DNA of 64,000 nucleotides from Astropecten irregularis (taxonomy: Eukaryota > Echinodermata > Asteroidea > Paxillosida > Astropectinidae): assembly GCA_963971285.1 (NCBI GenBank), contig OZ020246.1, positions 22,303,217 through 22,367,216 on the forward strand. The letters run 5' to 3'. This document shows, in pieces, positions 10,601 through 54,628 of this stretch. The translations under genes and the position numbers were made by a program. The notes under the pieces were generated by a model. The model did not search any database and was not told the origin of the DNA. It saw nothing but the letters and a program-made list of their open reading frames with translations. The stretch's first letter is position 1. Each line of letters begins with the position of its first letter.

Positions 10601-13600
10601 CCGTGTTAAACAAGGACAATTGACTGAAGCAGGATTCGAACCTGCAACCTCCAGAATAGTGGATATGTACTGTGCTCTTTACCAACTGCACTATCCACTC
10701 TATCATGTCTATGTTGGCTTCAGTAATGTGCATGTCACAAATTATTATTTACCTTTTTATTTTGCTGTGAATAAGTTTCAGTAAAATTAGATACACATGA
10801 ACGAATACACTGTGCCTTGTTGAGACCGAACACAATAGGATGAATAGCTTCCCACAGGGAAATTCTTAAGGTGTATACAGTAGGTCTCCACAAGGTTTTC
10901 ATGAAAATTAAAACATTACAAGGGACATTTGCTAGAAATTGCAACCCAGGAAAGTGATTCCGGTTCAAATGGGAGCGATTTCAATTCTGCTCTTCAGAGA
11001 GTGTTCATTAGTACACAAAAACAAAGCTATGTCTCCACAAGGATACAAATTCCGGTATTTTATGTAATGCATAGATGACTTGGCCCAGCTATATCTACAA
11101 ATGTTGCAACTTGCATTGGGATGTAATTGTCATATTAAGGTAAACCCTTGCCCGTCTTCCATATCCATATATGGATGGTCATGTGACTCACACGGTACTT
11201 GTATCTTCCTATTCAGGTCACAGTGATACGCTGTCTGGAGCAAGGTTTGGTAAACGCAACCCCAATCTATTATTCACATCCTCGAAGGATGGAACAGTAA
11301 GGTAAGACACTGATCTATGTAAGCATTGGATTGGATTCATCAATCCCCAGTCCTTAAAGGGAGCATATAGGATTTGCAAAGATGTGCATTTTGGATGAAT
11401 TTGGTTCTTAAACAGAAGTGAAGGTCTAAAACTTCCTTACAGACATTGTTTCATGTACCTTTTTACGCTTTGTTCATCTGGATAGCAGAAATACGGCCGA
11501 AATAATCTTGCCCCCTCCGAATCCTTAACGATTACACCACGCTTTTGAAATTCTACTAAATCGTTCAGACTGAATTTTGATTTCCTTGAAAAACCCAGCA
11601 TCTGATGAACCAAAACTTTTTGGAGTATGTATAATTTTGAGTTATAGGATACCATCATCTTTAAATATCCTAAAAACACAGGTTTACATCTTATAATTTC
11701 CTCTGATCAGCTGATTTCCTCTTTTTTCACTTCACTCTTTATATGCCATTGAAAAAGTGAAAAATACTTTACAGAAAGTATGGTCAAGATTGGAATTGTT
11801 AAGTCCAAGTTCCATGCCTGGAAACAATTAAATTAGCCATTTTTGTTGAGGATGTTAAAATTGTTTATGATCGCTTCATATTTGCTTGTGATTTGTGTGT
11901 GTATGCTTCAGTGTATCATACATACATGTAGGTTCTGTACATTGATATTGAAAAGTGCACACGTTAATCTTGTTCTACATGTAAGATCTTCACTCCTGCA
12001 AGATCATGAAAGATTCTATCCACAAACAGATTAGAATTTCTGGCCAATTTAAAAAGGTTAGGGGTGAGGCTTTATATAAAACTATTAAAATCTACAGTAT
12101 GAAGTAAAAGGGAAATATTAGATTATTCAACGGGATAATTCTGGTAAAATTTTATTATTAGATTTTGAGTGCTAACATTATCTTGAGACAGACAGTATTG
12201 AGAGGTTTGCAATGTGGAAAGGGCAACAAACGTCATGTACCGGTAATTTGATTCTTAGTGACAGAAATCTCTCCTTGAATCACAGGCTCATTGCATTAAT
12301 TCTTGTAGCGTTGATACAACCAAATTTGTTATCTTGAAGGATTTGTCTGCCTGCTGTGACATTTACATCAATCTTTTATATAAAAAAGTTGTTGTCGAAA
12401 TTCTGGGAATGAATTCAAGTCTTATCTTGTTATGCTATGGGCATTTATGAAACAGAGACTCGGGCTCCGTCTTGGGCTCTGTCTCAGGCTCTGTCTCAGG
12501 CTCTGTCTCTGTCTCAGGCTCTGTCTCAGGCTCCGGCTCAGGCTCAGGCTCCGGCTCAGGCTCCGGCTCAGGCTCCGGCTCAGGCTCCGGCTCAGGCTCC
12601 GGCTCAGGCTCTGGCTCAGGCTCCGTCTCAGGCTCCGGCTCAGGCTCCATTTCATGAATCCATTGCACTAAATAACGGGTATCAAAATAGATGATTTTGG
12701 CTGTGGTTTGGAAGTAGACTCTCTGGTTTGAAAAGGAAAACAGAGCTTTAGCTTCAATGAAAAAAAAACAACCTGTATTTTCATCATATGGATGACAGAG
12801 CTGGAGCCTGAGCCTGAGACACGTCACAGAGTTAAGACGCATCCTTTCTTTATGGACTCATTGCATCTATGCGACGCGTTGCGACGTGTCGCAGAGCGCT
12901 ATGAAATTGGCCCCAGCTTTCTGAACCTGATGCTAACATTGTGGAGTCTCTGCTTTGCAAGTAATTGATGACACAGTAGACTTGGTGTGTATTCAGGGTT
13001 ACCGGTAGACACTTCTGACTGACGTACACACACATGATTAATGGTGCTTGATGATACTTCCAACTTGTCAGCATCGGTGCTTTTGTTTGATGCTCTCACG
13101 TACATTAGAACTGTATGACGTTAGCATAGTGACTGACATGACTTGCAGGGCAAATCCGCTGTGATATATGATGGAGGTACAGCAGAGGAGGAAGTGCTCG
13201 CTAAAGCAAGAACAAAAAGTAAACTAGTTAAAATAATCAGGAAGAGACAGTTACAATTTCTATATCATATGCTGTGAGAAAGGAAGAATAGCGCTGCGCA
13301 CTAATGACGTCACACAAGTGATTTGGCCAGTGTGTGCATTTTGTACAAAAAACGAATGTCAGACAAACTTCTCATGCATGCACGCAAGCACACCCACCAG
13401 ATGTTTGCCGTGGTTGCAATGTTTGTCTGCTATCCGGTGTGCTATTGGAAGACATTGCAATGACAAGAAAAATTGTAAGGAAAAAGAGCTAGACTCACTT
13501 TCATCTCAAGTCTCAGCCGCTGGATGAAGATCAGTGAAATTGAAATAATAAGAACAGCAAAGGATAGGAGATTATGGAGATCCATGGTCGCCAACGTTCT

Positions 13601-16600
13601 TCTAAGAGAGAGACAGCAGAGGATGGGCAAATTCAGATTTATAACACCTAAAAGGGCAGGATGCCAGCCACAGAGAAAGATCAGTATGACAGCCGTGGCT
13701 GATTGTGAAGATGATGATGTTTGATTGAGGAGGGCTGCATATTTAGATATAATCCACATTTATCAACAGTGTCAGTGATTCATGGATTTGGGATTGGAAG
13801 TGCACTAACTCACATTTGGATCTTAGAAGTGGCAGATTTGAGAACTTTCTGGGGTGGTCTGTGCAGTAAGCCTGTTGAAAATTACAGAGAGGATAAATGG
13901 TTTTTGTAAAAATGTGAAGAATGCATTGTATGAATTAAGTACTTCAGAGAACAAATTGATTTGGAAAAAGTAATTAACCCTAACCAGCGAGCTATAAAAA
14001 GTCCCCATTCCCTACCACATTACCACAATCTCCACAGGGGAACTGGATCATAAACCACACATTTAGTTCTACACAAAGTCACAAACCACACTGTGGTGTA
14101 TTGTGGTATTCAGGATACCATATTTCCATTACTATAGATAAAACGAAGTGTAGTAAACTGTGGAACGGAGGTGGGTTACTGTTAAAGAAGCAATTTGGGA
14201 AAGGGCAGAACCATAAAGCTCCCAATCCTGACCAAATTTGCACAGATATTGGCTTATATGGAGACCTTTGATATGCAGTTTGCATGGAAATACTGTAAAG
14301 CTTCTCAGCTTCAAGACAATCTACATGTAGATTATTGTTAGGCCTCTGGATGAATGAAATAAGATCAGGATGATGGTTTGAATGTCAGCTTCTGATGGAT
14401 GATACTGACCAAGCCTCAGTAAAGGACTAACGTATCACGTAGACATTCATGTACATGTTTATGTACCAACCTGTTGTGTATTCAGTGACCTGGGCGGCCT
14501 ACAGCGCCTGAGCATGACCGAGTCAAATTAAGAAAGAAGGCTGGCCATATACTGTATGATGCCTGATGGCCCTACTAATGGATGGCTTTACGTGCCCGGT
14601 CATCAAGACTGTGATAATACTCTCACATGTATTATGTAAATGCTATCCGTGCTGTTCCAGCACCTGACTAGTATCATTGCAAAACCCTCAAGAGTTAGTG
14701 AAATACGGTTTACTGAAAGACTAGAGGAACAGGGGTTGATTTAAACAAACTCATCGTAACTTACTTACTTACACATTCTTTCTTATGACAGTGAAACAAG
14801 GAAATTGTTGATGATATTTGACATTTTGCATATTATGCCATGTTGAAATGTCAGCAGACTAGTGTCTAGCAAGGATTACTTAGGGGAGGATTAGGCCTAC
14901 ATGTACTGAGTGTGCCCAGCAGATGTTGTTGTGAACATATTCAGAAAATAAGTTTGTAGCATCACTTACTGTACCACCGAGAGCTTAAATAAGGTTGCAG
15001 TAGAATGGATATGAAAGAAAAAGAGGTCTTTCTACAAGCTACAGTGTATAGTACAACTTAAAAGCCTTTTAGGCATTATTCTTGAGGAACTTGAAAAGTG
15101 CCTAGAATGCACCGTGTTCAAGGTGGAATTACTCCACAGGGTGATTTCTCTACATTGAAAAAGCAAGAAGTCAAAGGAAAACTGCCACATAACCCGATCA
15201 GTGATTAAACTGGCTCAAATGAAAACAACATACTCATTGTCCTCTGTTGTGTGAATTTACCAAGAATCACTTCTTTGGGAGACATTGCCTTTTGAAATTG
15301 ACAGATGTTTGTATTGAAAGCTCTTCTGTCTTGCATTAAAATTTGGACACTTATTAAAAAAAAAGGTACATGTCTTAAAAAGCTAAAACCTGAAAGGTAC
15401 AGTACAGGATTGGTAACATACCCAAACAGAAATCTTCACAGATTTATTTATAACTTTCAGGATATGAAAATGGTGCTGGTAAAAACATACTCTGTAAAAA
15501 AAAATGTATATAAATATTTCCGGCTGAAATGCTTTATTTAAACAGAAATTAGTAAAGCAAAGACCGAAAACAGTTTTGATCGCGGGATGAGCATTCTTCA
15601 CAGTTTTCTACAGTTTTTGATGATGATATGAGCTGAATATTTCACAGGTTTGTTTTTATTCTATGCCAAATCAAATTATGAACAGTCTGCAGCTGCTCTG
15701 TCACCTTATCAATGCTGTATTATGCCTTTTTTAGGAGACATTAAAAATGTCCCGTAATTTCCAATGTCTTCCAAAAGCTCACTATCAGAATAGATGCTAT
15801 TAAACCTGTCTGCTTGAGAAAAAGAGGTTACCCAGGGGCCAACTGGCAAACTGCAGTCCTTGCAAGACTTTCATCATGATATACTGTAAGAATCGATCAG
15901 GAATCAGCCCTTGAACTTCAGAACAGCTCTATGTTATTGTACAGGCATCTGTTGCTAGTTGCTACCTTGGACTTGAGTCTCGGCTTTATTATACCTTGAG
16001 ATGTAATTCCTGCATAAATTTGGACGGTCAAACAAATTGCCTTCTAATAAGAACAAATCTACCTGATGAGGTTCAAGGCTCAGTGACTGTGATAAATTGA
16101 CATTGGTGATATCGTCATGGTGACAAGGCAGACGTTGATGATTTGGCCATTTTCAGGAGGAGACCTATAAATGTACAGATCTTGAATTCTCATTTTGGAA
16201 ATGACAACAATTTAACACAGTTTACCGAGCGGATGGGAAGCATTTATTTAAAAAAGAATTTCAGGAAATTGGAAAAACAGATTTTTTGTCTTTGATATAT
16301 AGTTACAACAATTAATGGCCACTTACATAATATAACATATTGTAGTCAGTGTGCTTCAAGGCGTAAGTTAGACCAAATCTGAGATTCACACATTATTATA
16401 CAAAATCATGCAAATATTCTCCACTGGAAGAAAACAGAAAGCCTTTTACAGTTGAAGGTAGTATCATACTTTGGTTCTTGTCAAAGAAATGCAGATTCAT
16501 CAGCAAAAATTGTGAAAATTTCAGTCCCATACGGTGCCCACTTTTTGAGAAAAACAGTGAAAAACGCTCACAGTATTTTCAAATCTGTTCACATGCAGGA

Positions 16601-18512
16601 GTTTTGATCTCCGAGATCAATATTGGTTTTTTGGGTCTTTGATTTTACACTTTTTTTTTTATTTTATAAATACAGCATTTCAGGCATAAAACATTTAAAT
16701 GGCATGTTTCTACCATCACCATCTATATACCCTTTAAGTTATAGGTACTGGAATCTGTGAAGATTTCTTTTGTGGTATGCTACTAAAGTATGCTAGTACC
16801 TTTAATCTGTTATTCTGTGTGCAGTCATCATCATTATCATCAGCAATAATTACAGCAGCTGCCTATGATGAATTATCATAAAACAGATATCGCATATCCA
16901 CCCATAGGGATTTTCAAGGTACTGATTAGAATATTATGGTCCCTGGTCAATGAATGGTTATTAACACACCTGAAACCATCTCAACTCCCAGGGAAGTACG
17001 GTATATACAGCCCAATCTCTTAATACAAGGGCACATATAAATAGTCATATCTACAGACATGTACCAATTAAACTCGGGGAGGAAGCTAGAGAACCAATAA
17101 GTGTCTTTCCCAAGGATCTTGGCCACAAGATCCTGAGCACAAAACACCTGTGGCCACTTACATGTACACTGAGTGGAACTCCACTATCAGACTACCGCAA
17201 CGAACATGGTGTGATCCACACAAATTGTTTGTTATAGTGGTTGTTCGTTAAAGTGAATAATGTTCATCAGGCCTGTACATTGTGCACAAAAATTGGGAGC
17301 CAAAGATGATGTTCGGTATAGCCAATTGTTCGGTATAGCTGTGTTCGTAATAGTGGCATTCCACTGCACATGTACTTAAGCTTTGCTTTTTGTAAGCATA
17401 AAAAGCCATGCTTAACTCCACTTGCCCAAACCCCATGTGAATGATACGTTAAGCAAACAATTTGGATACAAGTCAACATGGTCAAGAGTAAAGAAAGCAT
17501 CATGTTTTCACATGAAAAATTGGATCCATGATTTTTAGATTTCAAATGATGGCAGTATTCCTATTTTTATCAAAGAAGATCTAGTGTGCAAGATATTTAG
17601 GCCGACATTTTGGCACCGATACAGCCCTATAAAATTTGTCACCAGTTCACTTGGCGAAGGAGCTTTATAATAATGTATGGGATTCAGAAATTGGTACTTT
17701 TGCTGACATAAGAGTGGATCGTTGCACAAGTTCTATTTTTTATAGACATTTGCATCAGTTCATGACAGACCAGATTCAATATAATAAACATCAATACAAG
17801 CACCTTGTACAATGTACTAGATCATGTAGGTCAGGCTGACTACCAGTACCAAATAATTATGATATAGTACCAGCAACATGACCTTTCGCTTGGGTGTTAT
17901 AAAACAGCCTCGGGTGAGAAAGATACTCGGTGGGTTCTTGGACAGGTGTCACCCCAGCATTTACCTGCCATGCTCAGCCCCCCCTCCCTCCCAGCCAATC
18001 ACCAATTAATCCTACAGTCATCTCATATACAATGTACGTGAGTTGGACAGGTTTGAGAAGCCATGTCAGGACTGCATCAGAGAATTAGCTCAGGATTCGG
18101 TAGCAATTAAAGTTGTCATGTAGAGTTGGTCAGATATTAATTCAATTAAAGGCTGATTCGCTGGCTATAGTCTCAAAGGATGTCAGACTACATGAACAAA
18201 TGCATGTACTCTATATAATACATGCAGTATGTAATTGAATAGAAATTTGCAAAGAGCCGGCTGGCATTTGACTTTGAAGTCAATCAATTTACTCTATGGG
18301 GGTTTATGAAACCAAGGCTCAGGCTCAGGCTCCCGGCCGGCTCTGTCATCCACATGCTGAAAATAATATAGGTTGTGGTTTTTCATTGAAGCTGAAGCTC
18401 TGTTTTCCTTCTCAAACCAGAGAATCTGCTTCGGAACCGCAGGCAAAAGCCTCTATTTTGATAGCCGTTATTGTAGAATGGATTCATGAAATGGAGTTTG
18501 AGCCAGGAGCCG

Positions 18513-18582
<70 letters not shown>

Positions 18583-18601
18583 TTGAGCTTGAGCTTGAGC
18601 T

Positions 18602-18655
<54 letters not shown>

Positions 18656-21600
18656 AGAGCTTGAGCTTGAGCTTGAGCCTGAGCCTGAATCTGAGCCTGG
18701 TCCTCCATTTTGTAAACCCCCTATGAACCCACTCACAGTTATACATGAATTATTGTTTATGTACAAAATGACAATTTGTAAAAATGCATTCATTTGCTTG
18801 AATGTCAATCGATCAGAATATGAAATTTAGTTACATCGCAAGAGCTTTTGAGTGCATCTCATTTGTTATTTTATTTCAAAATGTCTAAATTTCATCATTG
18901 AGGCACGTTTCTGTCTTTCCTATGAATTCTGATAAAAGAAAAAACCTTCAAAAGATTTAGAATATTCCAGCCGTCATTGCAGCAGCTCATTAACCTTGCA
19001 CCGACTCAAAATCTGCCTTGGTTTTGTCGTTTTTGTGTTTGTTTTACAGTCTTTTACCCTGAAAGCAAAAAAAAATAGGCCTAAAAAACATCTCCTTGAC
19101 GTTTGGTGGCTGTACCAGTGATGAAGATTATAGGCCTCTACATGTATGTGATTGAAAAAAATGCAGGGATGTATGGTACATGTTGGGCTGATGAGCATAA
19201 ATCAACATCCTCCCCTCCCCTTCACAGTTGAATTGTTTGTGCAACCTTGCACACAGCCTGCATTAGCTGATTCTTCAGACCGATGACATTTACTAAATAG
19301 GAGTTATTATTTCAAGGAGTAGTCGTCTTCGTTCCTATGGAGCTCCTGTGTGTGCCGCTATCACATTACTCCACATTATTTTCTTTTTTCATTCAGTGCC
19401 CAGGGTCCACTCAGTACGTACAATTACTTTTCTATTTTTGTTGTCACTGTAGCGAAGAACGTTTACCAACAATGCATCGTACAGAAGCCATTACCATAAT
19501 TGAAATACTCATGCACTCATTTGCCAAATGCATTCTCTGTCTTTGTGTGTACGTGGCTCTACGTGCATGAACAAAAGAGAGGAATTCCATCTGCCCTAGA
19601 CAGACGTGATGTCTTGCAATATAAATGCCTAATGCTGACATACTTTTGTCGGCCTTGTTTGTAGTTTGACATTTTTTTCTTTCTTTGTTCACTTTTCAAT
19701 GATTTTTTCTTTTAACCTCGGAAGTACTTAGTTTTGCTACTAAGTCCAATCCTCTATTGATGTTTTGTAAATTCAGTGGCCTTTTTATATATTTGTATTT
19801 TTTTCATGAGCTTGAAATTGACCGAGAAAGCACAATGATCATATACATACATACAATTCAGTCAGTTTCCCTTGTGCTTTTTTAATGATTATTTTTATGA
19901 GCTTGACAGAAATTATACTTATAGAGAAACCGTTTGTGCACTGGTTCTTACGTTGTTTACCAGTTCAGTGCATACATTTTTTTTGCATCATTTTCCTTTT
20001 TTATAGCAATATTATAAGTGTGTTTTTTTTTGCTAATGCTCTCTTTTTGTATGATTTGTGCTTTCTCAATTGATTTTGACTTGTAGGCCTAGGTAGGTTC
20101 GAAAAGTGTAGTCAGTTTGACACTAAATAGATTTCGGAGACTAACTCATCTTGAAAACAAGTTTTTAGTCAACTAAATTATGATCAATGTTTCATTACAT
20201 TTGGCAATCTAGCTTGGTTTCAGCTGATACACACAACCTTCTCCTTGTATAATAAGGTGTGGCAGAAACTTTGAGTAAAAACTACAATAGGCCAATTACG
20301 TCTTTGTTTGCCTAACATCTCAGACGTCTCCACTTAAGCCACAGAATTCCTGCTACTCTAGAAATATCGAGAAAGATAATTTGAATGTTAAATTTTGCCC
20401 TCAATTAAAAAACAAATTAGCGACTGATTCTTTTTATAGTTGCTGATGCTGCGAGAAATTTGAAACGCACTGCAGTGCACTGACATGCTATTCCTTTCTA
20501 TAGAAGCATCTTGTATGGAATGTTTTAACCATGTAAATGGACGTTTCACAGTTTGACAAGTTTATCCTTTTGTCTAAATGCTAAAATATAAATTGCAATA
20601 ATAAACATGTACATTTGTAAATGTCAATTGCAAATAAGTATGTAAATGTAAATTTTAAAAATAAGCATGTAAATATGTATGTTCAGCAGTTTGACAATTT
20701 TATCTTGTTGTCTGAATGCTAAATGTAGAATGTAAATTGCAACAATAAGTATGTAAACGTAAATGTCAATTTTAATTGCAATAATAAGCATATGTAAATG
20801 TATGTTTTACAATTTGACAAGTTTATTCTGAAGGCTGAAATATAAATTGCAACAATGCTGAATCAATACTGGATTTTAGTTCAGACTCCTTAAACTGTTT
20901 AAAGGTACTATCATACTTTGGTAGTATACCGAAAAAGAGATCTTCACAGATTTACTTATAAATGCAGGGTGTAAAGACAGTGATTGTAGAAACATGCTGT
21001 TAAAATGTTTTTGCCTGAAATGCTGTATTTATCCAGAATAAGTAAAAAGTAATGACCAAAAATAATTTTGAAGATAAAAATAACGATGAAAAGATTTTCA
21101 AAATACTGTCAGACTGTGGGCATTTCCACCGTTTTCTCAAAAAGTGGGCACCGTATGGGACTGAAAATTTCACAGATGACTGCTAAGTACTGCATTTTCC
21201 TTGATTTTTGCCTGTGAATCTGCATTTCTTTCACAAAAACCAAAGTACGTGTATGATATTACTTTTTTATTCAAGATCCATTTTTTTGTTTGCAGATTTA
21301 TCTCTGTTTCCTTCATTGACTTCGGGAGAAATAATCTTGAGCAGTTTGCTTGAGGAATCTGGGAATCTATGCTTGGTATCAAACGTGAAACAAATCATCG
21401 TTCCAACCGAATCTTTACTTCAGATTCCCTCTGAGAATCTAATGAATTAAAATATACAGACCTGCATTCTGACCGTGGATTTAATTTAACAGAAGCCAAC
21501 AACAGAAAAAGAACAAAATGCCGGAGCCTGCTTATTGTGGGTGACATTTCAAATTTGCTTTGATTGCCATAGAATGCATGTGACAGTAGATGCAGTGCAC

Positions 21601-27600: not shown

Positions 27601-30600
27601 CCCATTCCACTTTCCCTTCCTTGTCACTCCACCTCCTTACCCTACCCTTCTCCTAATTCCTTTATATTTTCTTTTCTCTTCCTGTAACTTTCCTAAGACC
27701 AACCCCTAACCACACTCCAGTCCTCCCCCCACCGTCCACCTTCAACAAAAAGCTGCCTAGAGAATCATTTCCCCGAGGATGCATTGATTTTCCTTGCATC
27801 ATGAATATCTGTGGCCGGCATTTCCTTCCCCGTTTGCCATAGCAGGGAATTAACAGCGGTACGTGTATGTACTACGTACCCTGGGTCTTAAATTTGATAC
27901 ATAGCCACGGCGCGGCGGTCCATCCAGCGACTGAAATCGTGCTTCGTGATCCACCAGACTGCTGGGGCATGTCCTGACGAAACCCCCGCCTGAGGATTTT
28001 CTTTGCCCCTGCCATTACCTGGTGTCATATCGATCCGTCTCTTGACATTTAGGATCCGACATTGTCTCCCCACCTCCTGTTTTGATTTTGTTTTATTTTT
28101 GTTTATTTTATCATTTCCCATTCTTTCCATTCACAATACAGGTCTGTTTTCTATCAAGAAATCAGTAACTGTTCCTTTTCGTGGCTTTTTAAAAACATTT
28201 TAAACTGAATTTGGGGAAAAGTAGGCCAATGTGATTGGTATCGTGACTGCGCCACGAGTAGAAAGATTATGAGTTTCAAGCTGACAGCCTTCCCTTCTTG
28301 ACGAAAAGCAAACCCATTAGGAAATCAAACTCAATTAATTATGCAAGCAAATTAAGAGGCGGGTAAGGTGCAGTCAGTGTACAGAGGGGATAATTTGCCT
28401 CCTCGTATCAGGTTCAAGGACTGAGAGGAGTTTATTGGATTTGGTAGAGCTACTTGTAGCTCATGTGTTGCATCTTCACATGCACGTTTCGTCTTGACGG
28501 TTTGGGCAAATGGATCCAGCTACGTTGAGCGCCGGTTCGATATTATTTCATAAGGGTATAATAATGCAGGTGCATATGGAAAGCACAGATTTGTCAGATT
28601 GTGATTCTTCCTGAGCTGTGCACATAATGTGTGATAATGTAGATTCAAAAAAATGATGAACATGTTTTGCAGTGACGTGATGGCTTTTAAACTCCTCAGT
28701 TACCATGAGATTTCCCTTTTATGAAGTATTCAGTTATTGCTTGATTGGATATGCCGTTCCAGAGCCTTTCCAAATGATTTCCAAAGTTTTAAAATGAGCC
28801 ATTAGCCCGGCCCCCAAAACCTACACCGTAGGTTCAATGAATGCAAATCTTTGTAAAAGTCAAATCACATCTTGCGCATGTAATGACATTATACAATCTT
28901 TAACTTGTAAATGAGAAAATTACCTAATGTTGTAGGTACAAGGATGCTCCAAGAATACTGTTCCTTTGTATATGAATTGTTGAGGAAACTGTTCAACAGT
29001 TGAGCAATGAGCATAAGTCAGGGATGTGAGAGATTTTTTTTGTGTACACCTGCTGTGTACAAAAGTATAGGAACTTTTAAATTTCAGCTGTTTCCTTGGT
29101 GTTGTTTTTGTGGCCACTCACATCCCCTGATAAGTAGTTGCCCACCCCACCCCACTCCGCCTTACTTTGCGATCAGGAGACACCATCATAGCAAGAAGAG
29201 ATATTCCTTGTCCCATCGGTGGTTGCTGAAATACCCAAGAGAATCAGAGCACTTCATCAGCAGCTTCACATTGGTAGTGAATCTGTCATGCAGATTAATG
29301 GCCTGCCACAGTCAGAATGCTGTACATTATGTCATGCTTAGCCATTACTCTTCAATCTCCCTGTATGTATGTTGCAAGATATTGAAAGGGACATTCAATG
29401 TTTCTACAGATGCTGGGTGGGGGTGGGGGGTCGGTTAAGAGGAGGATTTACATGAAAACGGATTCATTCCTCATTTTTTTTTTCACTTTTGTTGAAAAGG
29501 CGCCCTATAAATCTTCATAAATCTTCATATTATTTCTGAAAGGTATAGCATACATGTAGGAGACTATATCAGACTTCTAAAATTCATCAGTTGATTGCCA
29601 ATGGATTGCACATCAATCATCTTTAAAGCTTTAAATCTTTAAAGCGAAATGAAATATCCACATGCCTTTGCTGCATTACATTACCGGTAATGGTATATAA
29701 AGTAAGGAATGTAGATTTGGGATTTACATTTATTATTGTTATGAAAGGGCATTGCCCATTAAAGGGAGCATGTAGGATTTGCAAAGATGTGCGTTTTGGC
29801 TGAATTTGGTACTTAAACAGAAGTGAAGGTCTTAAACTTCCTTACAGACGTTGTTTATTTCATGTACTGTACCTTTTATGCTTTGTTCATCTGGATAGCA
29901 GAAATATAGCAGAAATAATCTTGCCCCCCCTCTGAATCCTTCACGGTTTAATTACACCACGCTTTCAAAATGCTAAAAAGATTGTTTGGATGAACAATCT
30001 TTTTGAAATACACTAAATCTTGATTTCCTTGAAAAACCCAGCATCTCATGAACCAAGATTTCCCATGGTGACTGTTTGCACTGTTTATAAACTGTAGCGT
30101 TCATTTTCTGTCTCAAACTCAATATTTGTCTTTTGGCAGCCTTTCAAATCCTGTATGCTGCCTTTAAAATGTCACTGGAACGAGAATTTTAATATTTTTG
30201 AAATGGCTTAGATTGCTTCATGAAAAATATTAACCGGGAAATTTTAATATTTCTGAAATGGCTTAGATTGTTTCATGCGAAATATTAACCGGGAAACAAA
30301 GTAGCGATTCCTAAATGAGAAAGAGCTATTTTTGTTCAGCTTCTATGATGAAAAACGACTTGTCGGATCACTACACATTCATAAAGAAATAGATTTAGGG
30401 TCGTTGTACACTATCACCATTTTTGGTTAAATTGGTACAGTGCAGGATTGGTAGCATATCCAAACAGAAAGGCTGGAGGAAAAACTGGTTCTATAGGCAA
30501 AGAGTTCCAAAGAGATGTTGTATGAATAAAAAAGCTGTTGGAAGTTGTTTGGTATCTTAGCAGAGCCAGGGTGTATGAAATGAAAAGGCAGACCGGATGG

Positions 30601-33600: not shown

Positions 33601-36600
33601 GTGACAATCAATGTCGTGCTACAATGACAATGTCATATGGTAATTGATGCAGTGACAAGCATAGTCTTACTGCTGTCATAACTATGGTCTCTGTACAATG
33701 TCATATACAAAAATGGTTTTACTTCACCGCCTAGCAAAGCCAAAGTTTCATTGCAGTTCTGTCATAAATAAATAACAAAGTCTACAATCTTACAACCATC
33801 AAACCTTCGGGTAGAGCATCTAGGCTTCCTGTACACAGATAACATCAGTATATTTATTTTCCCATTTACAAAGTTCCCTCCATTTAAGGATATTTAGTTT
33901 ACACCCTTGGAAGGCTCTGCCATCGATTAGAATCGTTCCAGAGGACATTGTAGAGAATAGCCCGAAGTTTCCCCGTGGTATTTTATCCACGTCCCATTTA
34001 AATCATTTGTCTTGGCATAGTGAGTGGTTTTCCCCTAGGCTTCAAGTCCAAGCGCAGTCCCTTGCTAGATGGCCGTTTAAAGGCATAGTACGGAATTGGT
34101 AAAGGTGACAGAACAGCTGCAGACTGTTCATAATTTGATTTTGTCATGGAATAAAAACAAACCTGTGAAATTGTCAGCTCATATGTCATCATCGAAAACG
34201 GTATTTCCAAATCTGGGAGTTTTTATCTCACCCCAGATCAAAACTGTTTTGGGTTGTTGTTTTACTAATTTCTGGATAAATACAGTGGAATGCCACTAAA
34301 ACGAACCTTCCGGAGTGCACAGTTATTGTTTGTTATAGTGGTCGTTCTTATAGTGAACAATGTTCAGCAGGCCTGTACGTACATTGTACATAAAAATTGG
34401 GAGCCAAGGATGACATTTTCAGTATAGCCAAATGTTCGGTGTTCGTGAAAATGTCATTCCACTGTACAGGATTTTAGCCAGAAATATTTTAACGGTATGT
34501 TTCTATCAGCACCATCTTCACATCTTGAAAGTTATAAGTAAATCTGTACTTCATATCCTGAAAGTTGTACGTAAATCTGTGAAAACTTCTGCTGTTTGGG
34601 TACTATGTTAACTGTACTGTACCTTTAAAAGATCCTACATGTAATGTAAGGCATAGCTATCTAGATAGATAGCAACATGTGCTATATAAGGTCCCTGGGA
34701 CATCCCTGTGTTACTGCCCTGCAAACTCCCACAGTCTACTGTTCTAGACAAATTGCATTAAGGCAACTGCACCGACACCTACATGGACTGTAATTGAGAG
34801 AGAGAGGGAAAGAAAAGGGATGAAGAAAGAATTGAATTCGGTCTGTAGACAGAAAGTTGAGAAGGAGATGTTCTGCTCAAGGCAGGAATGATTTTATTTT
34901 GGTTTGGCTGTGGAGTTTACAATGATTAATTGACAAAATGATGAATGTGAGGGGTTTCAGGTGGAAATTAGCATACTCACGTACAAAATTTAGACATACA
35001 AACGATAAAGATCCTGCTTGGATCGAAACGTGTCAGGCCCTCCTTAATCCAAGCAAACAATGATATTGTTAGGAGAGAGAGCCTGATTACATTCTAATCC
35101 TAACAGGATCATTCTCAAAGGTTTAAGAATGATCTAGCTGCTAGGATTGCATGAAATGTCAGGCCCTCTTAGCTACAAGCATTTGATATATTTCAGGTCC
35201 TTATTTGGATTGATGAGCAGTTTGCGGCAGTTTATTACTTGCATTGAAAAAATGATAGTTATTATTAATGCAAGGATTGTACACATTTTATGGTGAATTA
35301 GTTTCACAGCAGTAAAATCTCTTCTAATAGTTTCAATAAGCCATTTGCGAGTTAAATCTGAATAGTATCTGGTACACAGACTTCTTTCATTGCACATAAA
35401 CACCCCAATTTGAATTTCTATGACTAAAGACTGTTGCTGTATCACATGATTCAGGGCAATTAGCTTTTGCTTAGTTACATAATTACAGACATATTCCTCT
35501 AATGCACTGATCATAATGGATAAGAATGGCACAAAGGAACCAGTCCATTCCAGAGATGGGTATCGCTATGCAAAAGCCTGCCCCGAATCATGTGCCATAG
35601 CAACTGAGTCTTCCCGTCTTTAGTCAGGTAAATTCATATTGGGGTGTTTATATAATATGCTATGAAAGAAGTCTGTGTACCAGATACTATTCAGATTTTA
35701 CTTGCAAATGGCACATTGTTGAGCTGACAAAGGAGGCACATTGAAGAACATACTGTGCGATACAGGAATGCTAACGGTAGAAAAAAGAAATCACCAAATT
35801 CGATCAGCCTAACACTCAAAGACTGTCATCCTCTTTTCCATAAGAAAAGAGCCCGCAGTCATTTTGTAGTCGTTATCTATTTTCATCTGAGATCAACTTT
35901 CTCTGTCCTACAATGGTTGTTATGTAAAAAGCGGAGCAGTGGTTTGTGACTTAGTGCCAGCTTTGAGTACCGGTACCTGTATGCATTGTACATGCAGTCA
36001 TATACTCAGTGTTAGGGCCTATATGTATCAGTGGCAATGCTTTTCGCCTGTAGCTAGTTGCCGAGATATATTTTATATTATTATCTGGGTCTTCTAATGG
36101 AATTTGGTGTCACTACATTTGATCATGTTACATCCATTGGACAATTGTGAAGCAAGGAATGCAGTTATATACATCCATGCATCTGGCACATAGAGCGAGA
36201 AAATTTTTTGTTCGGGAATCATCTTTTTTTTCAGCAGACAACTTTGTCCAACAATAAAGCCGATGTTTCTTTACAATTTGAACAAGTTGTGCAATTAATT
36301 TCTTCAGGGTATACGTTCCTATACTTAGAAACACGTTTCCATGGCAATCTCCCACTTGTCTGTTGCCATGACGGAGAATGCCACGGCCGTCCTTGGTTTT
36401 GGCATCATTGCTCATGCATAGTCATAAATATTTATCGCAGAAATTTTTTTTCTTAGGATTCTTCTTTTATATTCCTTGAAGTTGGCAAGTGAACCATATG
36501 AGTGCGTAATAATAATGCATGAATGCATGCAGACGATTCCTACAGGCAGAACGTTGTAGGGAATTTTTGTTTTGTCCTTCTCTTTGGAACTCTTCTTTGA

Positions 36601-42600: not shown

Positions 42601-45600
42601 GATCTTAAAAACATTAAAAATAATTTTGGTCACTGGTTTGACTCTTTTCTGGATAAATACAGCATTTCAGGCAGACAAATTTTAATGGTACATTTCTACC
42701 ATCACCATCTTTATACCCTGAAAGTAAATCTGTGAACATTTCTGTTTTGGTATGCTACCAAAGTATGATAGTACCTTTATTAAGTACACTGACTAAATAA
42801 ATGCAGTATAATGCTTATTACTCAAGCCGCATGTTCACTGTTCATTGCCATTGACATGATTGATATACATGTGCATCTGCATTGCCAGTGTGCAACTGGA
42901 TGGTGGCACTGCACTTTGTAGCTCTTGAAGTATAAAGTGAAGACTCACCCAAGAGTCACAAGATGGAGGAGGAGGAAATGACAAGGAGCTAGAGTGAAAC
43001 AAAATTGATGAGCACTGGCAATTGCAAAAAGGAAAGCAGGTTTTTAGTTTCAATTCCCATGCAGGAAAGTTGACCTTTGCCAGACCCAGATAGCGAAGAG
43101 AGAAGGCTCACTGTCGGTGGCTGGCTCGCAACACATGGCTCAATAATTCATTGCTTCAAGAAGTGACAAGATTGTGATAACCAAACTGGGGAAGATCAAA
43201 TGTTTAACCATGGAGCTAGATCTATGGTTTAACTGGTTTTGTTTGTGTTATTTCTGTTCATGCAGGGATTGCCGTTCGACCAATCTCTTGGGAGCGTACA
43301 AGGAGTCCCACTCGGACGACATCACACAGGTACATTATTATAATGCACGGAGTCGCCTCACAAATATCATTTTCTCAGTTTGTGTCGGGTACATAGACCC
43401 TATAGCTAACGATACAAGCATTGTAATATGGAAATTAGGCCTTCCCTTCACCGACGTAGATGAGCGCTGCATACTCAGTCAGTGCTTGTTGAATGCACAT
43501 GAACAATTCATGCGCTGACTTGGTGGGATTCGAACTCACGACCTCCTGCTTACTAGTGCAGATGCCATACCGCTAGGCATCCGAGCTAGCTGGGGTCAGC
43601 AGGGTGAATCGAATCCAATATCACGGCGGGCACCGCCGAATCCCACCTGAGCTTGCGCATGATTTGTTCATGTGCACTCAACAAGCACCGAGTATATATG
43701 CAGTGCTCAACTACGTCGGTGAAGTGCAAGCCTAATTTGCATATTATCTGTCTCCTGACCAAAAACATTAATATTCATGATACTACCTTTGCCCAATCAG
43801 GTCTTACTACCGTACATCTACGAAGAGACTCCAATAATGGAATTTATAAAGGGCCTGTTTGACACCATGAAAAACCATGAAACCACTCACATATCACTAT
43901 ATCCCAAGGATCAGTTTATCGATACGCGCAGCAAATCTGCAACCTGAGACTTTTCAATGACTTAATATACAATCAGTTTCCCTTGTGGTTATTTGATGGT
44001 TACATATTAATGAATTATAACTGATGGGATTGGCTGGTGTCTGCAATACTGCCTCTCTCTCATCTTGTAGCATCCAATGTCTTATTTTCTGCTCTTAAAT
44101 TTCTTGATTTGTCTCCTCCTCTTCTTCCTCATTGCTACACACACAACAGCAAAATCCATTTATCATCCAGCAGGTACATTGTACATTCATCAGCATTTCT
44201 TCTTCATGTTAACTCTCTTTTCCCTTTTATGGTGTATCACCTGCATGATGTCTATGCATGAACTCTGTGCATTTAGTGTACATAGTTGTGCCCAACCCAG
44301 TCCAGCAAAATGAGTCTTAAGTCACCCAATTTTCTGTTGAATGTGTTTGTCCACATGCAAAATCAAGTTACAGGCTTTTAATAGCAATTTACATGTTCCT
44401 ATAAATAACACATGCCTGTTGATGTTGGGTATATATGTTTATAGAATGTTGACCAGTAGGTTACATGCAATGTGTGTGAGGAAAGCAAGACAATAATTTG
44501 GGGTTTTGTAAAACTACCCAGAAGAAATTGACCAAGACTAATTTTGTGAAATCCGGCTTCAAATATTATGTTTATAAATATTTGGCTCTGAAAATTGAAA
44601 ATTTGTGATGGATTTTCCTTCAGACTTCTAACATTGTTGACAGTTACTCAAATTTCACTGTTGCCTAGCTGAAACTGACTGGGACTCAAGTTGTAATGTT
44701 AGGAGTCTTGAAAATCTCGCTTTTTTAAATACAATTTTGAAATACAATGTCGCTGGAGAAAGCAAACTCAGTGTTCATTTCCTCATTGTCATACGTGCAT
44801 TTGAGGGAGCATTCCTGGGAGTTACTAAGACACATAATTGTCATCTATTTTCTTGCCAGACGTTTTCAAATTTTTATCCATGCTAAGCCCCACTGGCGTT
44901 TTGAAGATGGGTTATGATCAAGTTAAGCACTGAAAAATACCAGATTTGTGGATGTGTTGCTTTTTTATTTTTCCTTGTTGCATTCTGCCACTCTTACATG
45001 TTTACCTCTAAGGCCCAACGGTGTTGTGTTACCAAGATCATCGATTGAGCCACACACTGGCAGGTGGAACTGAAAATGAAAACAATATACTGACTGTCAG
45101 TGTCAGCCAGCAGTATAAGCAGTCAGCCTGGCTTTGAACCTTTGAATCATTATCCTGGCATTTCCTAGAGCACAAAACCTGACATTCATGCTCCATTATG
45201 AAATAACCTAGCCAAGAATAAAATGCAATCAATGACGGCCCCTGCCCGATCCTAGCTGCTAAAGATTGTTCTTTGTGAGGCTTCGGAAGGGACTTGCACC
45301 TGTGATTTGTTTCTTTCTTTTCCTATCAACACGTAGACAGTTTGGCCGTCCGCATTAGATTATAATTACGTCTCCAAGGAAGTAAATTATGGTTTTATTT
45401 CCAAGCTCCGTATGATCTGGGGCCTTTCTCAAAGCTCATCTCCGGCTCAGACTTCATCTCTGTCATCCATATGCTGAAAATTAAGGTTTGCCTTTTCAAT
45501 CCAGAGAATCTACTTCTGATCCACAGCCAAAAGTCTCTATTTTGATACCCATAATTTTAGAATGGATTCACGAAATGGAGCTAGAGCCTGAGCCTGAGCT

Positions 45601-48600
45601 GAAGCCAAGCTTTGAGAAAGGCCCCTGTACAATAATACAGTTTCTGTCCCTGTCTCTAGCAACGACCCTTTTATATCTTCTTGCTCTGTAAGCCTATGTT
45701 ATGCCAATGGGAGACTTTTGGAGAGTCGGTCTTGAGTCAACAGCGCACAGACGCGCAATACAATGTACGCATGCTCACAATTGCGCAAGCATGGTTTGCG
45801 CTTGTGCTGTTGACTCAAGACCGACTCTCAAAAATTTTCCCTGTTGCTGTCCAGTGATGTAAATTAGTGGTTTTTGTCAACATTTGTGAAACAAACTCGT
45901 GATAACTGTCTTCTGTTTTGAGTATGCTGTACAATGTACTGTATCAGAATTTCCTTTTGATTGCACAGTAGACTGCTTGGAATTTGTGCCACAAGCATGA
46001 ATGGTGACCAGTTAGACAAATCATTGGATTGGTTTCCCTCGAAGCTGTTTTGTGTTTCTTGTGTTCACCAAAGTTCTCAAATTGTAAATCGGTATCCCGA
46101 AGAATTTGCATTCTTAAGTGGCGAACTTGAGGGGGGAATTTTTTTTTTTATAAAGTGCATGACACGAAGAATTGATTAAGGGAAGGTGCTAGTAGTGCCA
46201 GTACTCGTTGATGGGAATCATTCAAAATGTCACGGACTTGTGAAATTGAGTTTGGCCGGCATTCTAAACAAGAGAAACGTGACTAGAGTCAGGCATTAGC
46301 CTTGGAAGGCAATATGTGATAATGGCCAACTAGAAGTCCTTTTTATAAAGTCTTCTTCAAAATGGGAGGTTGCTATCTTCAGTTGCTTGTGTCCAAATCC
46401 AAAAGATGCAACAGCTTTTTGATTGCAACATTTGAGAAATAATGAGTAAAATCTTCCAGGTACATTTTGTGTATAACCAGTCCAATTAATAAATTTCACT
46501 CGGTTGTGCACTTGTTGAAATACATTCTTCTGTCATTACAAACAATGTTATTTACTTTTAATCCCCCTTGAAAATACTTGAAACTTGTTTATGTGATGTT
46601 AAATGTTTAGTAACTGGTTAAGTTGTCAGAATGCCCAGTGTGCACTGTGCAGAAAACATCTTGCAGTAAAATGTATTCAAAAGGTGTTGAGTTAGGACAG
46701 CCCAATGACATTTTGATCCTTGTAGGATCTTTGCTAGGGTCCTGCTACGATCAAAACAAAAGGCCCTCCCAACTCCATAGTTTGCTGGAGTTTATTACTT
46801 GTGTAAAAATATATTAATTAGTTTGAAAATCTATTTCTGCAAACTGTTTCTTATAGGTGAAGTTCCATCCCAACAAGCAAGAGAGCCTAGCCACGGGATC
46901 CACAGATGGTCTGGTGTGTGTCTTTGACATCAGCCAGAGCAGTGAGGAAGATGCCTTGGTCACTACTCTCAACTCTGAATCCTCTGTGGTGAGTTTACAA
47001 GAACTAGATACTCCTTCTTGACTCACTATGATTAGTAATCACTGAATCACTAGATGACTCAAGACAGTTACGGCAGTTGTGGCATTTATTTTTGACATTT
47101 AAAGGTAGTATCATACTTTGGTTTTTATCAAAGAAATACAGATTCATGGGCAAATATATAAAGGAAGATACAGTAAAAGTCATCTGTGAAAATTTCAGTA
47201 CCACATAGTGCCCACTTTTTTAGAAAACGGTGAAAAACGGCCACAGTATTTCTTATATCTTTTCTCTTTTATTTTTGATCTTTGATCTTTTAAAAGATCA
47301 AAAAGATTTTTCGGTCGTTGTTTTACTCATTTTTGGATAAAGACACAATTTCAGGCGAAAAATTTTAACAGTAGGTTTCTACTAGCATCATCTCCATACC
47401 CTGAAAGTTATATGTAAATCTGTGAACATTTCTGTTTTGGTTTCTTACCAAAGTATGATACTACCTTCAATACATGTATGTGCAGAGGCTAATGCCATCA
47501 TGTCAAGTGCCTGTGCTATATTGCACTGTATGTTCTAATATTTTCTGTATTTCCTTTTTCTCATTCTTCTTGTCTTTTTTTAGAGTCGAATTGACTGGTG
47601 TGGGTCAAACAGTGAGTATTTGTACTGTCTGACACACACAGAAACCATTCTCATCTGGGATGCTGTAGAGGTAATGAACAGTTCAAAATAGTTTTTTCAT
47701 CTTTTGAAAAATATATTAAAAACAGTTTGTTTGATTTACATGTATTTGTCACAAATGCTTGTTTTATTTGTGTACTATGACACGTCAGCACAGTTTTAAT
47801 AAATTTACCCAGTAGTGCTTTTATAGTTTTGTTAAGACACATTTGTCAGGATTTGATAAGAGGTCTAGGGTCGATTTCACAAAGCCCTGCGATCGATCGT
47901 AACTCGAGTTACGAAGGATAACCCATCGTAGGTGGCCTATCCCATGTAGGGCTGCAATGCATCAAAAGTCCTACGATTGATAGTGAGTTACGAAGAGTTT
48001 GGTGAAATCGACCCCTGGTTGATAAGCTGACAATATTTATTAAGATAAAGATTTGATATGTTTAAACAATGAGATTTATTACTTCTATAGTTTTGGTAAA
48101 ACACATTTTTCAGGATTTGAAACCTGTTCTGGTTGATTAATGTTAAGACAAAGGTGTACTATCTCTGTGCTTTAAGATTATCTTTGATAAAACCTGATTG
48201 ACCGTGCAAACAGCATAACGATTCAAATTTGTCCGTTTCTGTCCCAAAATACAGTCATCAGTGCTGACAAGATTTGATGATGTCCGGGAAAAGCTTGCGG
48301 TAAGTTTGGATAAAATCCTCCTTTCTTTCCATTTTGAGGTTGGGATGAAAAATAAAATTGCGCGTTATTTTAGAAAGAAGATGATTTCTTACCAATTAAA
48401 ATAATGAATAATAAACCCGGTATGGTGTTCCGGTGGTTGCTGGTTCGAATCCTACTCCAGTTTTTCTTTGTTCACTTTTCAATGACTTAATATTCAGTCA
48501 GTTTCCCTTGTTTGATGAACCCATTAGAGTTGCACTAGTAAATTTATGCTGGTTATCATACAGTGTATTATCTTGGTACATTTCATTAATATGCTGAATG

Positions 48601-51447: not shown

Positions 51448-51503
51448 CTACCGGAGGGTATGGAGCACTACGAACTGTGTACGCTGCTCTCCTGACAGTT
51501 GCA

Positions 51504-51509
51504 AATAAA
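51504..51509 (+). terminator. candidate polyadenylation signal of WDR89
   Basis: AATAAA lies 57 bp after the WDR89 stop codon, the first canonical hexamer downstream of the stop. The short 3' UTR this implies is possible but unproven. Sequence from about 51765 onward is repeat material, which favours an end near here. Confidence 0.35.
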
Positions 51510-51764
51510 CTGAAACCGAAGGACAGTGAAGAACTTAAAGAGTATGTCTATGCTCTGCGGCGATGACACTCTTAAAAATCAGCGTGAAGGCGTCCTGGTC
51601 CTGCTGGCATGATCAAATGACTCTGGCGGAAGAGGTGATGACGTTTCGAGAATTCCTGCCAGACCACACCGAGACAATTCGCCCTGTAGAATTCACAATA
51701 CGCTGATATTTACTGGGATCATTCAAGCGGGATGTCAGTTTGTAGATCAGTTATTGTCAGTTCT

Positions 51765-51905
51765 GGGGTCGATTTCACAAAACCTTACGATCGATCGTAA
51801 CTCGTGTTACGAAGGATAACCAATCGTATCCTACGTAGGGCTACAATGCATCATAAGTCCTACAATTGATAGTAAAGTTACGATGAGTTTGGTGAAATCC
51901 ACTCC
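51765..51905. mobile_element. MITE, GGGGTCGATTTCACAAA family
   Basis: GGGGTCGATTTCACAAAACC at the left, TTTGGTGAAATCCACTCC at the right; inner CGATCGATCGTAACTCGTGT and ACAATTGATAGTAAAGTTAC. It lies about 320 bp after the WDR89 stop. Confidence 0.8.
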
Positions 51906-52988
51906 AGGATATTATTTCAGTGTACTTCTGATATCATCTGATGATAAAGGTGTGAGACGTAGGGTATTACTCTTCTTGAAGTTCTACTGTTTTGTTTTAT
52001 CGTTGCTGCAAAAAAAAAAAGGCAAAACAAAACGAGAGTGACAAATTTTGAAACCCAGAGTGCGGGGGCTGACTCTTTCATAAGAATGGCCCCCTCTTGT
52101 TTGTCTTTCAAGCATTTCAAAGCTTTCTTTCGAAGTTTTTGCATGACTGGTAAGAGCTGAGGTTATTATGCCTTTGCCTCAAATGTAAGTTTGCATACGT
52201 TTAGGAGAGGGAAAAGTGAACTTGGTTTTGAACCAATCTAAGTAGGGAAACAGCCAGTGCTTAGAACGGACTTTGGTTTTGAAGCCAGCTGAATATCTTA
52301 CTTAAAAACGACATTTTCAGTTTTGAAAAAATGCATTTTGCCATTAATCATAGACAAGCAAAATTCTATTAATTGTATTTTTTATAAACATGTACATCGA
52401 TTATCATGTTCAAATGTAAAAAAAAAAATTAATTAACAACATTATTAAAAATGGTGACTTTTGATCATGTGTGAAAAATTTACAAATCATTTCTGTTTGT
52501 GTTATCTATTTTACTTATAAAAAGGCACTGCAGTTTGTTTGTTTTTATTTTTTTTTATTGATTAGGCCGATATGTTTTATGCAGTTGAGAATATTTGAAT
52601 TTTCGGATTGTAATCATAAAATGTACATGTCATTTTGTAAGAATCAGAATTGTTATACATTTAATTCAGTTTTTGTCTGCTGAATTTAAATTTTTGGAAG
52701 CCCTAAATTTCCCTTGTTTTTCTCCACATTTTTCAACTTCTTAAAACTTTCTTAGAGGAACTTGTCTTAAAGAAAAAAACTAAACTTGTGATAATGGTGA
52801 ATAAAATGCACTGTATAGATAAGATTGATTAAAATGTGATGCACTATGCAAATGGTATTAACAAGCACATGATCACAGTTATTTGCACTGAGGTCAATAG
52901 ATGGCGCTGTTTTAAATTCTAACCACCGAAAGATTGTATCAGATGTAACGCTTTGCATTATGGGATAGATACTCTTCAGATGATATTA

Positions 52989-53270
52989 GGCCCTTTTCCA
53001 AACCTTTGCTCCGGCTCCGGCTCTGGCTCCGACTCCGGCTCTGGCTCTGGCGCCGGCTCCAGCTGCAGCTTCAGCTTCAGCTCCAGCTCTGTCATCTTCC
53101 ATATGCTGAAAATATAAGTTGTGACCTGTCATTGAAACCGAATCTCTGCTTTCTTGTTCAAAATAGATATCTACTTCCAAACTGTAGCCAAAAGCCTCTA
53201 CATGTATTTTGATAATGGAGCCGGAGTCGGAGCCGGAGCCTGAGCCAGAGCCGAGGTTTGGAAAAGGGCC
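52989..53270 (+). mobile_element. hexamer-arm inverted-repeat element, copy D
   Basis: The exact 17-bp ends are GGCCCTTTTCCAAACCT and AGGTTTGGAAAAGGGCC. The left arm has about 14 GGCTCC/GGCTCT/CAGCTT units (53008-53090), the right arm about five GAGCCG/GAGTCG units. The core runs CTCTGTCATCTTCCATATGC to CTACATGTATTTTGATAATG. Here the opposite arm from copies A and B is the longer one. Confidence 0.85.
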
Positions 53271-54514: not shown

Positions 54515-54628
54515 TTTGAGAAAGATCCTGCTAGGATCGAAATGCATCAGGCCCTCCTAACTCCAAGCATTTGATATATTTCATGTCATTTTGGCTAATG
54601 AGCAGTTTGCAGCAGTTTATTACTTGTA
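54515..54628. mobile_element. MITE half, CTGCTGCAAACTGCTCATCA family
   Basis: CTTTGAGAAAGATCCTGCTA, GGATCGAAATGCATCAGGCC, CTCCTAACTCCAAGCATTTG, TAATGAGCAGTTTGCAGCAG, TTTATTACTTGTA: a clear right half. Confidence 0.72.

What the first reader, a model, noticed from the sequence alone, without database searches (positions are those of the whole stretch)
12439..53270. Four-copy transposon family whose inverted-repeat arms are GGCTCN hexanucleotide arrays
Copies at 12439-12915, 18298-18721, 45419-45625 and 52989-53270 share a core of about 130 bp (TCTGTCATCC-ATATGCTGAAAA ... GGATTCATGAAATGGAG). Outer ends are exact in two copies (18-bp GGGGCCTTTCTCAAAGCT and 17-bp GGCCCTTTTCCAAACCT). Between ends and core both arms consist of GGCTCN hexamers, complementary across the element. 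The array is therefore part of the element, which spreads an expandable hexanucleotide repeat around the genome. Array length ranges from 2-3 units to about 33. I know of no named family with this design; that is a limit of memory, not a search.
Basis: partly seen in the sequence, partly recalled or inferred. Interest (0 to 1): 0.75.

Follow-up and report, generated by a model that had tools for sequence, protein, structure and literature searches.

The report
Tiny transposon seeding hexanucleotide repeat arrays
A very abundant small parasitic DNA element carries a few copies of a six-letter repeat just inside both of its ends, so that wherever it jumps it plants the seed of a repeat tract that can later lengthen on the spot; transposons that carry such repeats are known, and this is a new, unusually clean variant.

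Summary
The four copies belong to a high-copy family (1988 exact copies of one core end) in the window's 476-Mb eukaryotic genome: a non-autonomous inverted-repeat element (MITE) of about 200-240 bp. The GGCTCN units are part of it. All 30 sampled exact type-I ends have a hexamer inside them; only 10 of 1511 genome-wide clearly lack one. Of 14 consecutive arrays with 6 or more units, 13 sit within 150 bp of the MITE core. Type-I copies duplicate a 3-bp CWG target, and two host repeats show the matching empty site. With GGG ends, this fits the NuwaI group of PIF/Harbinger-related (PHIS) transposons. The transposase partner was not found.

What spreads is a short seed. 67 of 89 arms not chosen for arrays are 3 mod 6, so arms change by whole hexamers. 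Left and right arms are uncorrelated, and long arrays show no clustering on a weakly resolved core tree. This suggests growth in place.

Unexpectedly, near-identical cores occur with at least two end types at different targets (CWG versus mostly TAT/ATA). MITEs carrying microsatellites are known, so this is a new variant of a known kind.

The parts
12439..12820 (-). Copy A: type-III-like end at 12439 (after TAT), long right arm, core 12645-12800 reversed, short left arm 12801-12819; outer left terminus not recognisable
12459..12648 (+). Expanded GGCTCN arm of copy A
   Evidence: (TRF)
18298..18721 (+). Copy B: both ends type III (GGGGGTTTATGAAACC / GTAAACCCCC), target duplication TAT at 18295-18297 and 18722-18724
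   Evidence: read directly
18316..18343 (+). Left (short) hexamer arm of copy B
18507..18699 (+). Right hexamer arm of copy B, expanded, read as NGAGCC
45420..45624 (+). Copy C: both ends type I (GGGCCTTTCTCAAAGCT exact), CTG duplication at 45417-45419 and 45625-45627; 2-4 units per arm
52989..53270 (+). Copy D: both ends type II (GGCCCTTTTCCAAACCT exact), left arm 53006-53089, right arm 53217-53253; no clear target duplication
   Evidence: read directly
10958..11058 (+). Copy of an unrelated dispersed repeat without the MITE: a paralogous empty site for the insertion at L013 (single CTG at the junction)

Best explanation
It is a high-copy non-autonomous DNA transposon (MITE) of the PIF/Harbinger-related (PHIS) superfamily; its type-I subfamily is NuwaI-like. 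It inserts at CWG and duplicates those 3 bp (shown). Its ends are a 17-19 bp GGG... terminal motif, then a subterminal arm of GGCTCN units, then a core of about 120-155 bp, mirrored at the other end (shown). A transposase supplied in trans cuts at the terminal motif (inferred; partner not found). Each jump delivers arms of about 2-5 units (inferred from the usual arm length). Replication slippage or unequal exchange then adds or removes whole hexamers in each arm independently, so some copies grow to tens of units (step size and independence shown; mechanism inferred). The repeated units may also serve as extra binding sites for the transposase or its Myb-like partner (inferred, untested).
For: 1511 exact type-I ends genome-wide, 0 in the reversed control; only 10 of 1511 clearly lack a hexamer, and the 4 of those 10 that I fetched are still the same MITE with a degraded or lost arm. 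1988 exact copies of a 21-base core end. 914 of 1511 ends have a perfect unit directly adjacent. 26 of 30 sampled ends have the core within 400 bp. 13 of 14 consecutive arrays of at least 6 perfect units on C1 lie within 150 bp of the core. TSD: 13 of 36 independent insertions have identical 3-bp flanks against 4.3 in shuffles, 0 of 20,000 shuffles as high; 4 of 39 match at 2 bp (shuffled 1.8) and 0 of 39 at 4-10 bp. Empty sites for two host repeats. Arm spans: 67 of 89 are 3 mod 6, and 26 of 35 in the set found by the end pattern alone. Arms uncorrelated. Long-array copies not clustered on the core tree. NuwaI definition: CWG TSD, ends usually start GGG, 12-61 bp.
Against: No transposase with these ends was found; only two of several DDE_Tnp_4 families could be examined, 3.7 kb each, and neither had the ends. 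Only 13 of 36 insertions keep a perfect TSD, and only 19 of 36 left and 14 of 36 right flanks are CWG. The core tree is poorly resolved (5 of 62 inner branches well supported), so transposition of already-expanded copies is not excluded. One of 14 arrays (L061) has no core. 4 of 30 end loci have no core beside the end (L046, L050, L051, L054). Type-III copies of the same core do not fit the NuwaI site.
Confidence: 0.8

Rival explanations
1. Foldback-type element: the hexamer arrays are the functional inverted repeats, as in Galileo or Tetris, with array length selected for transposase binding and symmetric pairing of the arms.
For: Arms are inside the ends and complementary; the single strand of copies B and C folds better than shuffles (z -3.75 and -5.11); foldback elements carry tandem repeats within their ends.
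Against: Arm lengths left and right are uncorrelated and 81 of 89 arms are 39 bp or less. The 3-bp CWG duplication and GGG ends point to PHIS. Much of the fold of copy C comes from its 17-bp ends.
Confidence: 0.1
2. Independent microsatellites: the MITE inserts preferentially into pre-existing GGCTCN arrays, or the arrays are coincidental neighbours.
For: MITEs that target microsatellites are known (MuTAnT, PMC4486113, listing); 1 of 14 arrays has no core.
Against: The arrays lie between the ends and the core, inside the target duplications. The two empty sites hold no array. 13 of 14 arrays have the core.
Confidence: 0.02
3. Expanded arrays transpose as such: one or a few long-array master copies generated the long-array copies.
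For: Long arrays often lie in copies with a type-III or IIIb end: 7 of the 14 sampled arrays plus copies A and B, although exact type-I ends are commoner genome-wide (1511 versus 907).
Against: Long-array copies are not clustered on the core tree (15 changes against a shuffled mean of 14.4, 398 of 500 shuffles as low; weak resolution). The expanded arm may be on either side. Runs of 3 or more perfect units are no commoner beside type III than type I: 272 against 907 listed with one unit, versus 300 of 914; the 907 is itself an undercount, because that pattern barred G at its last flank base.
Confidence: 0.2
4. The hexamers are protein-coding repeats (poly Glu-Pro or Ser-Gly).
For: ORFs of 117-147 aa with EPEPEP or SGSGSG runs at 12435-12857 and 18383-18830.
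Against: Open frames follow mechanically from a stop-free hexamer; the units occur in both orientations inside a high-copy mobile family.
Confidence: 0.01

Closest known systems
NuwaI group of the PHIS superfamily (PIF/Harbinger relatives), PMC4482050 (passages; sections 7 and 8 read)
   Same: 3-bp CWG target duplication, ends starting GGG, end length in the 12-61 bp range; NuwaI is reported only from animals
   Different: No coding capacity here; hexamer arms are not mentioned in the sections read; type-III ends of the same core do not show the CWG site
MITEs with hitchhiking (GTCY)n microsatellites in Lepidoptera (Coates et al. 2011; seen only as text and reference entry in PMC9659126)
   Same: A MITE that carries and disperses an expandable short tandem repeat with one degenerate base
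   Different: Tetranucleotide; whether it has two inverted arms beside the ends was not read; host differs
Xmix MITE / Xstir of Xenopus (Hikosaka and Kawahara 2004; seen only as table row and reference entry in PMC9659126)
   Same: Tandem repeats arising in the terminal inverted repeat of a MITE
   Different: Listed as satellite DNA; superfamily given as '-' there
Foldback elements Galileo and Tetris (PMC4079207 abstract and passages; PMC3688188 start of abstract in a listing)
   Same: Tandem repeats inside both terminal inverted repeats, varying in number, able to seed tandem arrays
   Different: Units of about 220 bp and very long ends in Tetris; Galileo is P-superfamily; here units are 6 bp and the ends are PHIS-like
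Subterminal hexamer repeats of Ac/Ds (AAACGG) - recalled, no call
   Same: Short hexamer motif repeated just inside the ends; there a transposase-binding site
   Different: hAT superfamily; dispersed copies, not head-to-tail arrays

Membership tests
NuwaI (PHIS superfamily), type-I ends | 3-bp CWG target site duplication | tested here: met
   13 of 36 independent pairs identical at 3 bp (shuffled 4.3); CWG on 19 of 36 left and 14 of 36 right flanks; context C|CWG|G in base counts of 39
NuwaI (PHIS superfamily), type-I ends | Paralogous empty sites with one CWG | tested here: met
   L013 host repeat empty at window 10958-11058 and in L090; L034 host repeat empty at L041 180-314. A third candidate (L008) has an indel at the junction and is unclear; most of the 38 joined flanks tested had no paralogue spanning the junction
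NuwaI (PHIS superfamily), type-I ends | Ends of 12-61 bp, usually starting GGG | tested here: met
   GGGCCTTTCTCAAAGCT, 1511 exact places; definition read
NuwaI (PHIS superfamily), type-I ends | Autonomous partner with DDE transposase and Myb/SANT ORF bearing the same ends | tested here: inconclusive
NuwaII (PHIS), considered for type-III ends | C|TNA|G target | tested here: not met
   70 outward flanks: TAT 18, ATA 15, TTA 5, GTA 4; TNA forms (TTA, TCA, TGA) 8 of 70; CWG 0 of 70. In favour: fourth base G in 50 of 70
MITE | Short, no coding capacity, inverted ends, high copy, defined TSD | tested here: met
   the ORFs in copies A and B are repeat translations
Foldback element (Galileo/Tetris type) | Long inverted repeats largely made of tandem repeats at both ends | tested here: not met
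   Median arm 27 bp in 89 arms; of the 14 array copies only L087 has 7 or more exact units in both arms
MITE carrying a microsatellite | Repeat lies within the mobile unit and varies in unit number between copies | tested here: met
   67 of 89 arm spans in 6-bp steps; 13 of 14 arrays beside the core

The most novel reading that the evidence does not exclude
The GGCTCN arrays act as joints at which terminal motifs are exchanged: one MITE body has acquired at least two sets of ends (perhaps three) recognised by transposases with different target specificities (CWG versus C|TAT|G-like), so the body can be moved by more than one machinery. Evidence: cores with type-I and type-III ends are 85.9% identical against 87.4% and 86.6% within types, while the flanking 3-mers are CWG in 14 of 36 versus 0 of 70; two hybrids (L037, L094) carry one end of each type.
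Probability: 0.25. Interest if true: 0.6.

Novelty: new variant of a known kind. Interest (0 to 1): 0.42.

Why it matters
It gives a quantitative case of a transposon as the likely main source of one microsatellite class in a genome (13 of 14 arrays sampled): over 1500 exact ends, nearly all with a hexamer seed, hence very many parallel starts for studying array growth. Because the copies share a common usual length and step in whole hexamers, growth and loss of arrays could be measured directly between individuals. The link between end type and target site, with the body nearly constant, is a natural experiment on what the ends of a PHIS element specify.

Tried and rejected
Rejected: microsatellite-targeting insertion (empty sites hold no array); coding repeat; copy A extending to 12915; a long-array clade (none visible). 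The idea that type-III ends go with longer arrays is left open: 7 of 14 sampled arrays are in copies with such an end, but runs of 3 or more perfect units are no commoner beside type III (272 against 907) than type I (300 of 914).

Led nowhere: organism identification (GFP family gave nothing, and its control rang nowhere; my first guess of an amphioxus is unsupported); autonomous partner (families around C8:30.47 Mb and C11:20.82 Mb carry none of the three ends within the 3.7 kb read); no exact type-I end on C1 lies within 10 kb of a listed PF13359 match on C1 (my reading of the listings; the second is capped); paper searches for the element's own strings found 0 papers; 'LanceleTn' found 0 (one paper spells it LanceletTn). 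One pattern was sent in the wrong orientation (5 matches) and repeated correctly. One search was a malformed request.

Dropped rows and biases: before the TSD count, cores without both type-I ends within 3 substitutions and 160 bp; three further copies of one duplicated insertion (L032, L033, L035) removed but kept. Before the tree: 8 of 73 cores (short, over-long or duplicate). Before the core-identity comparison: 10 of 73, leaving 63. The 89 arms (95 with duplicates) exclude ends with more than 3 errors, truncated cores and spans of 300 bp or more, and still include three spans of 172-292 bp that may join neighbouring elements. 54 of the 89 come from loci L001-L030, found by similarity to whole copy C, which favours short arms; the 35 from L031-L060, found by the end pattern alone, give 26 of 35 at 3 mod 6, median 22 bp. 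Some 'long' labels (L036, L043) rest on such joined spans. The 14 arrays come from one 2-Mb stretch, the first 100 of 18,550 listed places. The type-III flanks are the first 71 of the 100 rows shown, one near-duplicate left out, transcribed by hand.
Full report
OBSERVATION. The four copies are real. I read them directly, and a BLAST of the shared core finds four copies and no others in the window. Hexamer arrays in copies A, B and D are found independently by TRF; copy C has only 2-4 units per arm. Copies C and D have exact inverted ends, but of two different kinds. Copy B has a clean structure at 18298-18721 with TAT on both sides. Copy A lacks a recognisable far end.

FAMILY. Copy C as a query gave 3567 first-look candidates in the 475.7-Mb genome; all 40 places that were scored matched at E of 5.3e-40 or better. 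The 17-base type-I end occurs 1511 times exactly, the reversed control 0 times. A 21-base core end occurs 1988 times exactly. From the loci the element reads: GGGCCTTTCTCAAAGCT end, GGCTCN units, core of about 120-155 bp, NGAGCC units, AGCTTTGAGAAAGGCCC end, in total about 200-240 bp. I see no gene in it.

ARE THE HEXAMERS PART OF IT? (i) Ends to hexamers: the first 30 end places in contig order (28 distinct elements) were fetched; all 30 have GGCTC with at most one mismatch within 13 bases inside the end (a loose criterion), and 26 of 30 have the core within 400 bp; L046, L050, L051 and L054 do not. Genome-wide, a pattern that demands clear absence of the unit in register finds 10 of 1511, against about 42% expected for random flanks (0.75 cubed, used). 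Four of those 10 were fetched and all four are the same MITE with a damaged or missing arm; six were not examined. A perfect unit sits directly beside the end in 914 of 1511. (ii) Arrays to core: the first 14 distinct arrays of 6 or more perfect units in contig order (C1, 1.35-3.33 Mb; from the first 100 of 18,550 places) were read; in 13 of 14 the core lies 2-146 bp away, L061 has none.

HOW IT INSERTS. For 39 copies with both type-I ends, flanks agree at 3 bp (15 of 39 identical, shuffled 5.2), with base counts of C, W, G and a preference for C before and G after; 2 bp gives 4 of 39 (shuffled 1.8) and 4-10 bp give 0. Removing three copies of one duplicated insertion, 13 of 36 have identical 3-mers against 4.3 in shuffles, none of 20,000 shuffles reaching 13; CWG is on 19 of 36 left and 14 of 36 right flanks. 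Of 38 joined flanks tested against the DNA in hand, two different host repeats provide paralogous empty sites with a single CTG or CAG at the junction; one empty copy lies in this window at 10958-11058. CWG duplication plus ends usually starting GGG is the published description of the NuwaI group of PHIS transposons (PMC4482050: passages, sections 7 and 8 read). The genome holds many matches to the Harbinger-type transposase family PF13359 (151, a lower bound), but the partner of this MITE was not identified: two families examined over 3.7 kb each have none of the ends.

HOW THE ARRAYS BEHAVE. In 89 arms from loci not chosen for arrays, the distance from core to end is 3 mod 6 in 67, with values 9, 15, 21, 27, 33, 39 and so on; 81 of 89 are 39 bp or less. 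In the subset found by the end pattern alone it is 26 of 35, so similarity to copy C does not explain it (1/6 expected). So length changes by whole hexamers. Left and right unit counts are uncorrelated (46 copies, Spearman 0.06; 39 copies not chosen for arrays, 0.05). In the long copies the expanded arm is on either side; 7 or more exact units in both arms occur in L087 and in L043, the latter with a doubtful far end. On a tree of 65 cores, 16 long-array copies need 15 changes, shuffled mean 14.4; but only 5 of 62 inner branches are well supported, so this says only that no clustering is visible. The simplest reading is a short seed delivered by transposition and later local growth by slippage or unequal exchange. 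The mechanism of growth is inferred.

TWO SETS OF ENDS. Type-III ends (TCCGTTTCGTAAAC.CCC outward) occur with an adjacent unit at least 907 times. Their 3-base flanks are TAT 18, ATA 15, TTA 5, GTA 4 of 70 transcribed, the fourth base is G in 50 of 70, and CWG is found in 0 of 70, against 14 of 36 right flanks for type I (Fisher p about 4e-8). This does not fit the C|TNA|G rule of NuwaII well (8 of 70). Yet the cores are barely differentiated: mean identity 87.4% within I (45 copies), 86.6% within III (10 copies), 85.9% between, a small difference that 17 of 500 permutations reach. Two copies carry one end of each type, L037 and L094; by eye neither has a target duplication, as expected if they arose by recombination after insertion. 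Type-II ends (copy D, L016, L029) make a third set with too few copies to define a site. Either ends evolve fast while the body is kept, or ends are exchanged, possibly through the arrays.

WHAT IS KNOWN. MITEs that carry and disperse short tandem repeats are in print: a review (PMC9659126, passages seen) lists lepidopteran MITEs with (GTCY)n microsatellites and Xenopus MITEs with repeats in the ends. Foldback elements carry longer tandem repeats in their ends and can seed satellites (PMC4079207, abstract and passages). I found no paper with six strings of this element, and none of the 5 papers that hold 'MITE', 'hexanucleotide' and 'terminal inverted repeat' has them in title or abstract; these searches cover only open-licence papers, and Repbase was not available. 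Hence: new variant of a known kind.

LIMITS. The organism is not identified. Genome sequence could be fetched only in small amounts, so array statistics rest on 14 arrays and 73 distinct cores. Counts by exact pattern are lower bounds for the family.

Noticed in passing
   Followed up: partly
window 60316-61215 (+): Open frame with a strong protein-kinase domain (PF00069, E 6.6e-64); resembles PSKH1 (name recalled, not tested).
   Followed up: partly
window 13-50, 9206-9260, 32009-32051, 35186-35260, 54574-54628: A second, abundant short dispersed repeat: the flank of L022 matches five places in the window and a number of other loci.
   Followed up: no
L032, L033, L034, L035 (C1 about 0.91-1.19 Mb): The same MITE insertion inside a host repeat occurs in four places within 0.3 Mb, so the MITE was apparently carried by duplication of its host.
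   Followed up: partly
G000 C8:17078241-17250758: Type-III ends with identical flanks recur about every 40-50 kb, suggesting a tandem segmental duplication.
   Followed up: no
window 30185-30296: Two head-to-tail copies of a 55-bp unit, 92% matching.
   Followed up: no
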